Origin: Rufibacter latericius
GTDB taxonomy: Bacteria; Bacteroidota; Bacteroidia; Cytophagales; Hymenobacteraceae
Assembly: GCF_003721515.1 (NCBI RefSeq)
Contig: NZ_RJJD01000001.1
Span: forward strand, 1-64,000
Direction: 5' to 3'
Length of the DNA stretch: 64,000 nucleotides
Below, piece by piece: positions 51,281 to 56,508 of this stretch. The notes beneath the pieces were generated by a model, which searched no databases, had not been told where the DNA came from, and saw nothing but the letters and a program-made list of their open reading frames with translations. The first letter of the stretch is position 1. Each line of letters starts with the position of its first letter. Made by a program: the position numbers and the translations under genes.

Positions 51281-51706
51281 ATGAAAACTAAATTAACCTC
51301 CGCTTTCTTTTCAGTTTGTTTCCTGTTCGCCATGGTTCCTGCCTTCGCCGGTACCACTCCTGCCAACGGACCAACTACCCGCTCTACCAAGGTCTTCAAA
51401 CACGTTTTGAAAACCGATCACATCCGGATCCTTTCCCTGGAACTGAAGCCCGGTGAGTACCTGGATTTCCATGCCTCGCCAGAGCAGGAAGCGTACGCCG
51501 CCACTGACGGAACCCTGCGCATGGTGACCTCAGGTTGTGAGGAGAAAATTGTAAATGTTAAAGCTGGCGACCGGTTATTTGTTGACCTTGCTCAATTCAA
51601 GAACTGGAACGTGGGTGATAAAACCTTTAAAATATTGCTCCTAGAGCAACCTAGAGAGGTTGTGGAAAAAAAATCAAACTTTTCTTTATACTCACTTAAA
51701 CCTTAA
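51281..51706 (+). CDS. Secreted cupin-fold protein
   Basis: From the ATG at 51281 this is 141 aa with a signal peptide ending AFAG (about residue 23). The mature part reads like a small cupin barrel: LELKPGEYLDFHASPEQEAYAATDGTLRMV then VKAGDRLFVDLAQFKNWNVGDKTFKILLLEQP. The metal-ligand set of enzymatic cupins (several His and a Glu) is not complete, so a binding role is more likely. Function unknown. Upstream in-frame residues lack any signal and were not used. Confidence 0.75.
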   Translation: MKTKLTSAFFSVCFLFAMVPAFAGTTPANGPTTRSTKVFKHVLKTDHIRILSLELKPGEYLDFHASPEQEAYAATDGTLRMVTSGCEEKIVNVKAGDRLFVDLAQFKNWNVGDKTFKILLLEQPREVVEKKSNFSLYSLKP

Positions 51707-51750
51707 TGTATTAGGTCCGTTAAAACCTATACATTCACACTCTATTTCAG

Positions 51751-51806
51751 CTTAAAAGTAGTCTTGTTCTATCCGCATGCGCTCTGGTGATAGACTACTT
51801 TTAAGC
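51751..51806 (+). other. 14-bp hairpin in the 3' region of the cupin-like gene
   Basis: GCTTAAAAGTAGTC (51751-51764) pairs with GACTACTTTTAAGC (51793-51806). Inner CTATC/GATAG pairs extend the stem. It overlaps the left part of a 36-bp palindrome copy (51798-51833). Positions may be off by one base. Confidence 0.65.
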
Positions 51807-51856: not shown

Positions 51857-51978
51857 TATTATACAGAAATGGGACTATCCCATTACTATCTACTAATCGG
51901 TTTCAGGCCAGCTTTATCCGGTTCACTCCTCCTTTTTCAGGTTTCAGATAGGAAAAAGCCTGCTTCCTCTACTTTCGA

Positions 51979-52009
51979 TTGCCGCCGGGGCAAAGGCGTT
52001 GCATATTTG
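51979..52009 (+). promoter_or_regulatory. Conserved promoter of small-RNA unit 1
   Basis: TTG (51979-51981), a 20-nt spacer and CATATTTG (52002-52009), one mismatch from TAnnTTTG. The same spacing and the same -7 box recur at unit 2 (55910-55940). Confidence 0.7.
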
Positions 52010-52011
52010 TA

Positions 52012-52160
52012 TCACCAATCAGGACGAAAACCCCTGCAAAGCTTCAGGTTGAATAGTTTTCCTGGTTCTGGTTGGTCCGCTGGCTAAGGCTGGCTTTCAA
52101 TTGAATTTAGGTTTTGTTTGTTAGTTTGGTGTAAGGGGCCCGGTTTTTCCGGGCTTTTTC
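52012..52160 (+). ncRNA. Predicted structured small RNA, unit 1
   Basis: A non-coding unit of about 148 nt. It begins at CACCAA (52013-52018), which can pair with TTGGTG (52126-52131) to close the molecule. Inside, CCTG/CAGG form a hairpin. A 55-nt 3' part (52111-52165), identical to unit 2, includes the intrinsic terminator GCCCGG-TTTTT-CCGGGC-TTTTT (52138-52159). I do not recognise it as 6S, SRP, RNase P or tmRNA. Confidence 0.7.
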
Positions 52161-52269
52161 ATTTCTAGCTTATTCCAAACCACTCGAAATTGTTCCACTT
52201 CCCAATTTTTATCAAGGACCCTACCGGAAGTGCCTGTAAAGCTCCCCTGCTTTTAACCAATCAGAGAGT

Positions 52270-53283
52270 TTACCACAAATTACTCGGGCTAGTGGGTTGC
52301 CGATGGTTTAGTAACCGGATTCCCAGCAACAGTTCATGGCTTCCGGCACTGGCCCTGCTTACCGCCGCTGTCCCGAAATCATGCGAATAACTTACTTCGA
52401 ACAAGGAGTTGAGCGTTAGACCGGCCATTCCGGAAAAACTCTCCCCTTGTCGGTAAGACCCTCCCAACCAGAATCGGTTATCATAGCTCGCTTTGACATT
52501 TAAGTCCAGTGACACGGGTAAAGGCTGTACCCATTTAATCAAAACGGAAGGTACCAAGGCTACCTCTGGCGTTAGGTTCAGTTTATAGGCTCCGGTTACA
52601 AAATAATGCGGCAGAGTTTTCGAATTTTCCTGGCTGTATAATTCTTTCCCCAGGAGTTGGTAAGCAGATGCCCCCACATAAAATTTTTGGGAATACAACC
52701 ACAAGCCCACCGAGAAGTTGGGGGTAAAGGAAGAACGCCCCGTATTTACCAGATCTGCAGGATCAGCGAAGGTAACCTGATTTGACCTAAACGACTGCCG
52801 CAAGAACCCCACCGATGCCCCGCCAGAAAGCTTCAGCTCCTTTGTAAGCCACAAATGGTAGGCATACGTGGCGTTGACCTCCGTCTGGACAAAAGGCCCG
52901 ATTCGGTCATAGAGCACACAGCCTCCAACTCCGTGGTGAGGCTTGTGTTTCCGGTAGTTTCCGTATTGTTCCGGTGATGGGGCAAAGTCACCTTGTTTTG
53001 CATCTGCGGTTTTGGAGATGGAGGAAGGATGGTTCAGGCCAAGCTTGGAATGACCAGACAGATAAAACGTAAGGGGCGCTCCTTCTATTCCTGCCCACTG
53101 GGTTCGGCTGCTGAGTTTAAGATCCAGGTAATCCTCAATGCCGGTGAGGGCGGGGTTCAGCAGGTAGTTGTTCAGCATGTACTGCGTATGCTGGGGGCGT
53201 TGCTGCGCTTTTGCCAGGAAAGGAAGCCAGAAAAAGAAACAGCAGAAAAGCACTTTTTGAAACAAGAGTCGGTTCCTTTTCAT
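52270..53283 (-). CDS. PorP/SprF-family type IX secretion membrane protein
   Basis: A 337-aa outer-membrane protein with a signal peptide ending AKAQ (about residue 26). The opening QRPQHTQYMLNNYLLNPALTGIEDY is the PorP/SprF signature. Such proteins are outer-membrane partners for the secretion or anchoring of T9SS type-B sorted proteins. The start overlaps the stop of the upstream lectin-domain protein by four bases (ATGA), so this is a matched cargo and PorP pair. Confidence 0.93.
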   Translation of the reverse strand: MKRNRLLFQKVLFCCFFFWLPFLAKAQQRPQHTQYMLNNYLLNPALTGIEDYLDLKLSSRTQWAGIEGAPLTFYLSGHSKLGLNHPSSISKTADAKQGDFAPSPEQYGNYRKHKPHHGVGGCVLYDRIGPFVQTEVNATYAYHLWLTKELKLSGGASVGFLRQSFRSNQVTFADPADLVNTGRSSFTPNFSVGLWLYSQKFYVGASAYQLLGKELYSQENSKTLPHYFVTGAYKLNLTPEVALVPSVLIKWVQPLPVSLDLNVKASYDNRFWLGGSYRQGESFSGMAGLTLNSLFEVSYSHDFGTAAVSRASAGSHELLLGIRLLNHRQPTSPSNLW

Positions 53284-55331
53284 CTCACAATGCTAACGGC
53301 GCCGGTAAGGGTACGTCCCTTTTCCAGGTTGATGTGATAGAAATAAGTACCAACAGGAAGTGGCTTGCCTTTTTGGGTTCCGTTCCAGTTGTTGCCATAG
53401 CCCTTCGTTTCAAAAACGCTTCCTCCCCATCGGTCAAAAATCCGGAGGGTGGCGTCTGGGTAACTGGTGATGTTCGTGATTTCCCAAACTTCGTTGGTGC
53501 CATCGCCATTGGGTGAAAACGCCGTGGGAATAACCAGGTTCTTAGTGACGGTGATGGTGACCGAGGCCCGGTTTTCACATCCTTGATCATCTTTCGCGGT
53601 AACGGTGTAGGTGGTGGTTTCCCTGGGCTGCGCCTTTGGTGCGGGACTGGAGGCGTCACTCAACCCTAAAGCTGGCTCCCACCTAAACGAAACCCCTCCG
53701 GTGGCATGTAACTGGGTACTTTGCCCAAGGTTGATGGTGACATCTGCTCCGGCCTGGACCATAGGCAATGGCTTGATAATGACCTCGACTGGGACTCTAG
53801 GGCTTTCACAGCCGTTTTGGACAACCGAGGCATAAAACGTAGTAGAACCAGATACCTCTGGGGTATTGAAAGTGGAACTTGTTGCGCTGGCAATAGGAAT
53901 GGTAGCAGAAGGTGAATCGTACCAGCGGTAAGCATCGGCGGTGGAACTGGAGGCTTGCAGGGTCACGCTGCCGGGCCCGCATCGGGTAGCACTGGTAACT
54001 GCTGGGGCAAGGGGTAATTCCCTGACGGAGACGGCTACCTGATTTGACGATAATTTGGTGCCACAGGCATTGAACACCTCAACGGAATACATCCCTTTTT
54101 CCTTTACCTCCAGAATATTGGTGGTGACCAAGCCTCCCGTTGGTTGGCCATCTTTCCGCCATTGGTACAGGTAATTCTCTCCCGAGGTCACCGTCAATTG
54201 AAGCTTGTCTCCGGCACAAATTTCCAACGCGGCATTGGCCTTCAGTTCAGGAGGAGGCATTACCGGGCAAGACACTTGCATGGTCACCGACGCCGTGGCG
54301 CATTTGGAATAACACTGCCCCGAGGCGTTCTCACAAACCTCATAGACAAACGTATCTGTCCCCGAAAAGCCACGGTTGGCGGTATAAACGATCTGGTTGT
54401 TTGACACGATAGCGGTTCCATTCTTGGGTGCCGTCATGACCTTGGTTAACCCAATGGGTTCCTGCTTGGTATGGGAGTCATTTTCTAAAACCGGCAAGGA
54501 AACAGGTTTCAGGGGTTCTGCCTTTCCCACATCATCCTGGGCTACCGGTTTGCTTTCGGGGTCAATGATGCAAATGGTCTGTTCGTTCTGCAGCCCTCCC
54601 GTGGAACCAGTAAAACCGTAATATACCTCCTTACTCCCGCTGAACACCGTCTGTATCAGGTCATCACGGTGGCTGAACCGCTGCTTGCCGTCAAAGAAAA
54701 GCTGTAGTTCCTTGGTGGCGGGGTTCCAGGTGATTTTATAGGTATGGCACTGGTTGTTCTCCACATCTACGTTATCGGGATCAAGCCGCACGGGCAGAAC
54801 CTTTGGCCTGTCCATAATGCCATTATATATCACCGCCGTGTGGTCTTCCGGGATATCATGGTACAGGACTCCATTATCATAGGTGTCAAACTCTATGGCT
54901 ACCGAGGGGCTGATGGATTGTCTATTGGCATTATCAAACTCATCAACCCCGAACCCCAAACCGGAACCGGAGTTACCTCGGGCCTCAAATCCTCTTGGAT
55001 CATTATGGAAAAGGAACGCGATGCCGTCTGCCCCGCTTTGGTCTTTGGAACCCAGGAAGATGATAAAGGAAACCTCAAAGGGCTTGGTAAGGTCTATTTT
55101 GTCTTTCCACCAGATGGTCCCGAAACGGGCGGGCTGGTCGGGGGTGATGCGGTAACAAGTTGTAGAGGCAGGAGCGGAATCTCCCCTTGTGACGAATTGA
55201 CTGTAGCCGGGCAAAGAAGAAAGCAGGGAAAACAAAAGCCACACAACCTGGCGAGGAATAAGCCATTGATTTTTAGCTGTTTTTAAGTTTCGGGCCCCAA
55301 AGAACTGCTTCGTGGAGTAGAGTACATTCAT
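53280..55331 (-). CDS. Lectin-like adhesin with T9SS type-B sorting domain
   Basis: A 683-aa secreted protein. After a long N-terminal segment with a signal sequence (LLFSLLSSLPGYSQ) comes a legume-lectin-like domain (about 48-265; FEVSFIIFLGSKDQSGADGIAFLFHND and SPSVAIEFDTYDN). Then a tandem beta-sandwich repeat (about 268-350; LPVLENDS, GFSGTDTFVYEVC), Ig/PKD-like domains (about 355-600), and a gliding-motility type-B C-terminal domain (about 600-683; PTAFSPNGDGTNEVWEI, LRIFDRWG). It is probably exported by T9SS and binds surface glycans, by analogy. Confidence 0.93.
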   Translation of the reverse strand: MNVLYSTKQFFGARNLKTAKNQWLIPRQVVWLLFSLLSSLPGYSQFVTRGDSAPASTTCYRITPDQPARFGTIWWKDKIDLTKPFEVSFIIFLGSKDQSGADGIAFLFHNDPRGFEARGNSGSGLGFGVDEFDNANRQSISPSVAIEFDTYDNGVLYHDIPEDHTAVIYNGIMDRPKVLPVRLDPDNVDVENNQCHTYKITWNPATKELQLFFDGKQRFSHRDDLIQTVFSGSKEVYYGFTGSTGGLQNEQTICIIDPESKPVAQDDVGKAEPLKPVSLPVLENDSHTKQEPIGLTKVMTAPKNGTAIVSNNQIVYTANRGFSGTDTFVYEVCENASGQCYSKCATASVTMQVSCPVMPPPELKANAALEICAGDKLQLTVTSGENYLYQWRKDGQPTGGLVTTNILEVKEKGMYSVEVFNACGTKLSSNQVAVSVRELPLAPAVTSATRCGPGSVTLQASSSTADAYRWYDSPSATIPIASATSSTFNTPEVSGSTTFYASVVQNGCESPRVPVEVIIKPLPMVQAGADVTINLGQSTQLHATGGVSFRWEPALGLSDASSPAPKAQPRETTTYTVTAKDDQGCENRASVTITVTKNLVIPTAFSPNGDGTNEVWEITNITSYPDATLRIFDRWGGSVFETKGYGNNWNGTQKGKPLPVGTYFYHINLEKGRTLTGAVSIVR

Positions 55332-55815
55332 AGGCCTGAGGCGTGAGAATCTTGATTTAGGGAATTGATTCTAAAAAGGAAGGTACTCTGTAAAACAGGC
55401 CGAAGTAAGCTTAAGGAAAAACTTCCTTCATTCTGACCCGGATAAAGTAACAAAAAATTCCAGAACAATCCATCAACCAACCTCGGCGGAATTCTTGCTT
55501 CGGATGAATCCGAAAAAGGAGGTACAGGAAGCAAAAATCGGAAACTCGCCAAAGCTCTCCATGAAACTGAATTTGAATCTGATTTGCGGGCGATTTCAGG
55601 AGGTAGAAATCCGGTTTGGCTCCTTTCAGAAGGATTCAGTAAGGATGGCTTTTGCTTGGTTCAAAATCTAAGAACTGAAAAGAATTCTGAGCTTTTTGGA
55701 AGGTGAAAAGCCATTTTCTTCCTTTTGGCTCCTGAATAATGGAATTTTAAACCTGAAAGCAACTGAATTTTCTGCCTCTTCAAGCCAAAAAGGGAAATTC
55801 CGTCCTCCGGTTTCA
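55332..55815. other. Region upstream of the lectin-like gene
   Basis: About 480 bp without a convincing gene. It holds a small hairpin TTCGGAT-GA-ATCCGAA near 55498-55513. A partial, degenerate half of the 36-bp palindrome is near 55380. The promoter of the minus-strand lectin gene must lie here but has no clear TAnnTTTG box. Confidence 0.45.
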
Positions 55816-55909
55816 TGGCCTGTTTTACCCGGTTCACGCCTGGGTTTTCCAGTTCACTCCGGGTTTGTCGGGGTTCAGTCAGGAAAAAGGCCGGTTCCTC
55901 TCATTTCGG

Positions 55910-55940
55910 TTGGCTACGGGGGCAAAGCACTGCATATTTG
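55910..55940 (+). promoter_or_regulatory. Conserved promoter of small-RNA unit 2
   Basis: TTG (55910-55912), a 20-nt spacer, CATATTTG (55933-55940): the same -7 box, spacing and GGGGCAAAG spacer core as unit 1. Confidence 0.7.
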
Positions 55941-55942
55941 TA

Positions 55943-56073
55943 ACACTAAACGAGACCACAGCCCCTGATTCCCTCTCAGCCGGCTGCTTTCCCCGGACTC
56001 GGTTAGTCTTCAATAGGTTTAAAGTTTTGTTTGTTAGTTTGGTGTAAGGGGCCCGGTTTTTCCGGGCTTTTTC
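55943..56073 (+). ncRNA. Predicted structured small RNA, unit 2
   Basis: A unit of about 131 nt homologous to the one at 52012-52160. The 5' CACTAAAC (55944-55951) pairs with GTTTGGTG (56037-56044); relative to unit 1 a C-G pair has become U-G, so pairing is kept while the sequence changes. CTGA/TCAG replaces the inner CCTG/CAGG hairpin. The last 55 nt (56024-56078) are identical to unit 1 and contain the terminator (56051-56072). It ends about 100 nt before the Rieske gene. Confidence 0.7.
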
Positions 56074-56169: not shown

Positions 56170-56508
56170 ATGCAATGGATCAAACTCTTTGAAAGCGAAG
56201 CCGAGGCTAAATCACAAGTCCCCGTTTCCAAGTCAAAAGCGGTAATGGCCGCCGGAAAGGAAATCTGCATCGCCCACACGGCTGCCGGGCTTTTCGCGGT
56301 TACTAACGAGTGCCCACACCTGGGCGATGCCCTTAGCCGCGGCACCGTCAACTACCTGAACGAGATTATCTGCCCCTGGCACAGCTACCGCTTCCACCTG
56401 ATTTCGGGCGAGGAATGCAAAGGCCGCACCCGCCCGCTGGAACGTTACCCATTAGAAGTGCGGGAAGACGGGGTGTATGTGCAGATGCCTGAAAACCCTT
56501 CACAATAG
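56170..56508 (+). CDS. Rieske 2Fe-2S ferredoxin-like protein
   Basis: A 112-aa soluble Rieske domain. The two ligand boxes are CPHLG (Cys48, His50) and CPWHSY (Cys68, His71), which hold a [2Fe-2S] cluster. The absence of a membrane anchor and the NirD/NagAb-like size suggest a ferredoxin-type electron carrier. No oxygenase or reductase partner is next to it, so the pathway is unknown. Confidence 0.92.
   Translation: MQWIKLFESEAEAKSQVPVSKSKAVMAAGKEICIAHTAAGLFAVTNECPHLGDALSRGTVNYLNEIICPWHSYRFHLISGEECKGRTRPLERYPLEVREDGVYVQMPENPSQ

What the first reader, a model, noticed from the sequence alone, without database searches (positions are those of the whole stretch)
51979..56073. Two paralogous small-RNA genes flanking a T9SS PorP/lectin pair
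Two non-coding units (52012-52160 and 55943-56073) share a promoter with identical spacing and -7 box, a 55-nt identical 3' end with an intrinsic terminator, and a closing stem. The middle parts have diverged, but the closing stem changes from C-G to U-G pairing and the inner hairpin from CCTG/CAGG to CTGA/TCAG, so structure is kept while sequence changes. Homology extends upstream to about 51900 and 55815. The conservation pattern (ends fixed, middle variable, no shared reading frame) suggests regulatory RNAs with different targets. I do not recognise them as known RNAs.
Basis: partly seen in the sequence, partly recalled or inferred. Interest (0 to 1): 0.82.

Follow-up and report, generated by a model that had tools for sequence, protein, structure and literature searches.

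The report
Tandem sibling small RNAs of Rufibacter
Two neighbouring genes for short non-coding RNAs, found in every Rufibacter-group genome examined, end in the same fixed stretch of letters, and sequences able to pair with that stretch sit just before the start codons of several transport, protease and energy genes, so the RNAs probably turn such genes down.

Summary
The two units are real. They are conserved in 16 of 16 same-genus genomes (29 copies: 13 genomes with a pair, 3 with one), with a fixed promoter, an almost invariant tail and a terminator. They match no Rfam family, and no convincing copy was found outside the genus. They are a tandem pair; the PorP/lectin genes lie between them in only 4 of 13 paired genomes.

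The coevolving helix pairs the 5' arm with the middle. The upstream homology is a phased row of TTCA boxes at fixed distances from the promoter.

New here: the constant tail (core GUUUGUUAGUUUGGU) is probably the seed. In the genus, 27 of 34 off-locus sites complementary to it lie within 60 nt upstream of a start codon, against 4 of 23 in sister genera without the RNA and 5 of 18 for the reversed motif. Candidate targets include H+-pyrophosphatase, ammonium transporter, acetyl-CoA synthetase, transporters and secreted peptidases.

Best reading: sibling trans-acting sRNAs sharing one seed that block translation of a nutrient-scavenging regulon. Transcription, pairing and repression are inferred, not shown.

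The parts
51902..51967 (+). Unit u: phased upstream boxes, TTCA at 51902, 51922, 51943 and TTCC at 51964 (steps 20-21 bp)
   Evidence: Over 29 copies TTC[AG] at -88 and -67 in 29, -108 in 22, -129 in 13; TTC at -46 in 26 of 28 anchored copies
51979..52009 (+). Unit u: promoter TTG-N20-CATATTTG
   Evidence: Pattern in 29 of 29 copies, spacer 20 in 28; Bacteroidota -33/-7 type is recalled
52010..52160 (+). Unit u: small RNA, about 151 nt; 5' end inferred from the -7 box
52013..52077 (+). Unit u: helix P1, 5' arm 52013-52028 with 52062-52077, enclosing the CCTG/CAGG hairpin
   Evidence: Own arm pairs with own middle better than swapped arms; fold
52111..52136 (+). Unit u: constant tail, proposed seed; core GTTTGTTAGTTTGGT at 52116-52130
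52133..52159 (+). Unit u: intrinsic terminator
55812..55898 (+). Unit d: phased upstream boxes, TTCA at 55812, 55833, 55853, 55874 and TTCC at 55895
55910..55940 (+). Unit d: promoter TTG-N20-CATATTTG
55941..56073 (+). Unit d: small RNA, about 133 nt; 5' end inferred from the -7 box
55945..56007 (+). Unit d: helix P1, 55945-55957 with 55995-56007
   Evidence: 5 of 13 pairs with two-sided changes over 12 copies, 82.7% of cells paired
55959..55986 (+). Unit d: hairpin P2 inside P1, C-rich loop
   Evidence: 4 of 9 pairs with two-sided changes, 97% of cells paired
56024..56049 (+). Unit d: constant tail, proposed seed; core at 56029-56043
56046..56072 (+). Unit d: intrinsic terminator
   Evidence: stem never varies in 12 copies

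Best explanation
The two units are sibling trans-acting small RNAs of about 151 and 133 nt. Each is made from its own promoter under a phased row of boxes, probably bound by a regulator, and ends at its own intrinsic terminator. The 5' half folds into a variable but coevolving structure (P1 around P2). The constant tail before the terminator is the seed: it pairs with CCAAACUAACAAACAAA-type sites, mostly about 10 nt upstream of the AUG, in a set of mRNAs (transporters, secreted peptidases, acetate and ammonium use, H+-pyrophosphatase) and blocks ribosome loading. Both siblings carry the same tail, so they should share targets and differ in expression, stability or activity. Shown here by sequence: conservation, promoter and terminator pattern, coevolving helices, and the excess of complementary sites in start regions in this genus. 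Inferred: transcription, pairing in the cell, repression rather than activation, and the regulator.
For: 29 copies in 16 of 16 genus genomes. P1 coevolution: 0 of 20,000 arm swaps reach the observed pairing; two-sided changes in P1 and P2. All 34 off-locus matches (3 mismatches or fewer) to the antisense of the tail were fetched: 27 have an ATG of an ORF of 80 or more codons within 60 nt, 26 of them within 25 nt; 24 of the 27 are not inside a long same-strand ORF. Reversed motif in the same genomes 5 of 18, random positions 16%. Same motif in 21 sister-genus genomes 4 of 23; Fisher p 7e-6 and 7e-4, not corrected for relatedness. By my grouping the 27 sites fall in 16 genes. hppA leaders of 16 of 16 genus genomes carry a (C/T)TAA..ACAAA site; pairing with the tail ranks 0-51 of 200 shuffled tails there, 7-178 in 11 genomes outside the genus. 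The tail is the top window in an unbiased scan.
Against: No transcript data. The tail is not better than shuffled tails against all 331 start regions of a 464-kb sample, so any effect is limited to a subset. Only 2 of the 27 start-region sites are in the window's own genome. Mismatches in the sites are not biased to G-U wobble: 10 of 74, against 20 of 68 in sister genera. Predicted ensembles leave the tail unpaired only 37% on average. Every genus genome has the RNA, so no genome in the genus without it could serve as a control.
Confidence: 0.66

Rival explanations
1. The complementary leader motif is a Rufibacter translation-enhancing or mRNA 5'-end element, and the tail of the RNAs matches it for another reason. 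The RNAs then act otherwise, for example by binding a protein through the GUUUG-rich tail.
For: Start regions of this phylum are A-rich and G-poor (PMC6847099, passages). The tail is not better than shuffles over all start regions. No wobble preference in the sites.
Against: The reversed motif, with the same composition, does not sit before start codons as often (5 of 18 vs 27 of 34), sister genera lack the pattern, and the exact match of motif and tail occurs in the genus that has the RNA.
Confidence: 0.22
2. Each unit is a leader or attenuator of the gene behind it (the Rieske gene for unit d).
For: Unit d ends about 100 nt before the Rieske start at 56170, and Rieske lies next to the locus in 16 of 16 genus genomes.
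Against: Unit u has the same parts but is followed by unit d or by genes on the other strand. The terminator stem never varies in 12 copies and no competing antiterminator that covaries was seen.
Confidence: 0.05
3. The units are a divergent 6S RNA that binds RNA polymerase.
For: No 6S-Flavo match in 16 of 16 genus genomes, so the genus lacks a recognised one of that family.
Against: No match of the units to any Rfam family at gathering or at meaningful E. The supported fold is a 5' domain and a terminator, not a long rod with a central bubble, which is the recalled 6S shape.
Confidence: 0.03

Closest known systems
Neisseria sibling sRNAs NgncR_162/163 (PMC9973317; passages read)
   Same: Two similar sRNA genes side by side; single-stranded parts pair with the ribosome-binding region of metabolic and transport mRNAs and mostly repress them
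   Different: Other phylum; bound by Hfq; seeds in a loop and linker region rather than in a tail before the terminator; no sequence link tested
GibS and FopS sRNAs of Bacteroides (PMC7366714, PMC11697453; passages read)
   Same: Same phylum; paralogous sRNAs of similar length with a conserved single-stranded seed that pairs near start codons and represses carbon-use genes
   Different: Seed at the 5' end, not the 3' tail; 14 scattered FopS copies; other class of the phylum; no Rfam match of the present units
Promoters under LytTR-type regulators (recalled, not from a call)
   Same: Direct repeats with a GTT-like core about 21 bp apart upstream of a promoter
   Different: Four or five boxes rather than two; the regulator here is unknown

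Membership tests
trans-acting base-pairing sRNA | free-standing unit with own promoter and terminator, no conserved ORF | tested here: met
trans-acting base-pairing sRNA | conserved stretch complementary to start regions of several mRNAs, more than controls | tested here: met
   27 of 34 vs 5 of 18 and 4 of 23; not met over all start regions
trans-acting base-pairing sRNA | expressed, and changes target expression | not testable with these tools
   No expression data held
sibling sRNA pair (Neisseria type, by working) | adjacent similar copies with a common seed | tested here: met
   13 of 16 genomes with two copies; shared tail
sibling sRNA pair (Neisseria type, by working) | redundant repression of shared targets | not testable with these tools
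   Needs mutants
GibS/FopS family | 5'-terminal conserved seed R1 | tested here: not met
   The conserved stretch is the 3' tail and the 5' arm varies; no Rfam match. R1 letters were not compared directly
6S RNA (6S, 6S-Flavo) | match to the family model | tested here: not met
   for the units; for 6S-Flavo in 16 genomes
LytTR regulon | bound by a LytTR-domain regulator | not tested
   Only spacing and core resemble recalled sites

The most novel reading that the evidence does not exclude
A two-state sibling sRNA. Fast-evolving middles then tune how active each sibling is, while a constant 3' seed serves one nutrient-scavenging regulon that arose with the RNA in Rufibacter.
Probability: 0.25. 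Interest if true: 0.68.

Novelty: new member of a known kind. Interest (0 to 1): 0.52.

Why it matters
Small RNAs of Bacteroidota outside Bacteroides look little described: the listing for Rufibacter (15 of 34 papers shown) had no sRNA title, and Hymenobacter with 'small regulatory RNA' found no paper, within an open-access library only. This finding gives a defined sRNA pair with a predicted seed, a short target list and an operator array, and lets one ask how sRNAs find targets in bacteria whose leaders lack Shine-Dalgarno sequences. The pattern of constant seed and variable body also suggests how sibling sRNAs can diverge without changing targets.

Tried and rejected
Closing stem as the conserved fold: rejected as a covarying helix, kept only as an alternative pairing. 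Arm-tail complementarity exceeds shuffled arms as a set (0 of 300), but 57% of shuffled arms also reach a 6-pair helix, so the support is modest.

Homologues in other genera: 9 of 188 other family genomes gave CM hits of 30-34 bits. Read by eye they look like ordinary terminators behind a GTTTG-rich stretch, several right after what looks like a stop codon; not accepted. In 8 sister-genus stretches around the Rieske gene the model with filters off found nothing above 19 bits.

GTTTG-rich stretch as a general terminator feature: other terminators found in the window do not have it.

General antisense to all start regions: rejected. The tail is no better than shuffles in the window's genome and two sister genera (the third sister set was cut off by the time limit). 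The antisense k-mers are not a general start-region consensus.

Operator array as a regulon motif: exact TTCACTCC-N13-TTCA occurs away from the RNA loci 0-1 times per genome, so no regulon could be read from it. A first pattern had the wrong spacing and found nothing.

Small ORF, attenuator, 6S: see rivals.

Full report
What is there. Each unit is a complete small transcription unit. Unit d: boxes TTCA at 55812, 55833, 55853, 55874 and TTCC at 55895; TTG at 55910; CATATTTG at 55933-55940; RNA from about 55941; terminator 56046-56072. Unit u has the same layout between 51902 and 52159, with boxes at 51902, 51922, 51943 and 51964. The two share one identical stretch of 55 nt. Blastn of u against the window's own genome finds d at E 2e-33 and otherwise only four short weak fragments. 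The window has one Rfam match, a tRNA elsewhere; with E up to 10 the region gives four chance-level matches, all far below gathering score.

Spread. Blastn over 59 genomes, own included, matched 20: 16 of the genus, and 4 others with fragments of 23-28 bases. A covariance model from 12 of the 13 d copies (the divergent G007 copy was left out) matched 16 of 16 genus genomes, 29 copies (13 genomes with two, 3 with one), all at E 6e-10 or lower. Of 204 family genomes 25 had a match at E 0.01 or lower; the 9 outside the genus score 30-34 bits and look like ordinary terminators. A scan of named contigs for part of the tail hit 12 stretches, 11 titled Rufibacter and one Sabulibacter ruber.

Neighbourhood. 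A priA-like ORF lies upstream in 15 of 16 genus loci (not in L037, genome G001). A small secreted ORF is visible between it and the RNA in at least 14 of 16 by the N-termini printed. A Rieske gene follows in 16 of 16. The copies are 413-677 nt apart in 9 of 13 paired genomes and about 3.9 kb apart in 4, where ORFs of the size and order of PorP and lectin lie between (Pfam names from the window only). So the tandem pair is the common state and the T9SS genes are incidental. A tree puts most u and most d copies in separate groups, but the two copies of G007 are sisters (support 1.0), which suggests gene conversion or a second duplication.

Structure. Own 5' arms pair with own middles better than swapped arms: mean -12.3 vs -8.7 kcal/mol over 29 copies, 0 of 20,000 permutations; against the tail there is no such effect. 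On 12 d copies, P1 has 5 of 13 and P2 4 of 9 pairs changed on both sides, and no shuffle of 500 reaches any of the five measures; in P1 17% of cells are unpaired. The copies are related, so shuffles overstate significance. Both pairings may be real states.

Upstream array. Counted from the base after the -7 box, TTC[AG] stands at -88 and -67 in 29 of 29 copies, at -108 in 22 and at -129 in 13; TTC stands at -46 in 26 of 28 copies that could be anchored. Steps of 20-21 bp are two turns of DNA. Fixed phase and distance argue for a bound regulator. The likeness to LytTR sites is recalled, not tested.

Targets. Matches with 3 or fewer mismatches to the antisense of the tail (20 nt): 63 in 16 genomes, of which 29 are the RNA genes and 34 lie elsewhere. 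All 34 were fetched. By one rule (ATG opening an ORF of at least 80 codons within 60 nt downstream, same strand) 27 of 34 pass, 26 within 25 nt, and 24 of the 27 are not inside a long same-strand ORF. The reversed motif gives 18 matches, 5 pass, and one of those 5 is the same DUF2147 start region as a real site. Random positions pass at 16%. In 21 sister-genus genomes the motif gives 23 matches against 22 for its reversed control, and 4 of 23 pass. The 27 sites fall in 16 genes by my grouping of N-termini. Pfam of one protein each: H+-pyrophosphatase (3 genomes), ammonium transporter (3), S8 protease with I9 propeptide (4), DUF485 (2; the ORF behind it looks like an acetate symporter, by eye), MFS transporter (2), tricorn-like peptidase (2), DUF2147 (2), and once each DctP, M28 peptidase, amidohydrolase, three Vps10/BNR proteins, acetyl-CoA synthetase and two without a family. 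Two of the 27 sites are in the window's own genome, DUF485 and hppA.

The hppA leader. In 16 of 16 genus genomes a (C/T)TAA..ACAAA stretch lies about 10 nt before the ATG (read by eye), though several leaders otherwise differ. The tail's pairing energy ranks 0-51 of 200 shuffled tails there, against 7-178 in 11 readable genomes outside the genus; two of those 11 rank 7 and 13, so good pairing also occurs without the RNA.

Results against. The tail is not better than shuffled tails over all 331 start regions of a 464-kb sample. In that sample the 20-nt antisense with 5-7 mismatches is not clearly enriched in start regions; the 15-nt core with 3 or fewer is (5 vs 1.2; 1 of 100 shuffles reach it), and three sister sets show no clear excess. 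Wobble-type mismatches are not preferred in start-region sites: 10 of 74, against 20 of 68 in sister genera. The start predictions behind searches come from a script of mine, not from an annotation.

Literature. GibS and FopS papers, the Neisseria sibling paper and the F. johnsoniae translation paper: passages only. Other searches gave listings only. Subscription journals are not covered.

Verdict. A real, apparently undescribed sRNA pair of a known kind. The seed assignment is the new claim and rests on sequence statistics only.

Noticed in passing
window 51750-51806: Perfect 15-bp inverted repeat GCTTAAAAGTAGTCT / AGACTACTTTTAAGC behind the small secreted ORF, followed in the relatives by a T run; found in 14 of 16 genus loci (not in L037, L043 by this pattern). 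Probably that gene's 3' end.
   Followed up: partly
window 51281-51706: Small secreted ORF upstream of unit u has no Pfam match although it is kept next to the RNA pair in most genus genomes; by eye it looks cupin-like.
   Followed up: no
L081, L083, L084, L085, L087, L088 near base 1500: In sister genera some terminators, apparently at ends of protein genes, are preceded by a GTTTGTTTG-rich stretch like the RNA tail.
   Followed up: partly
L043:8790-8951 and L043:9230-9384: The two copies of genome G007 resemble each other more than the u and d copies of other species (support 1.0): concerted evolution or a fresh duplication.
   Followed up: no
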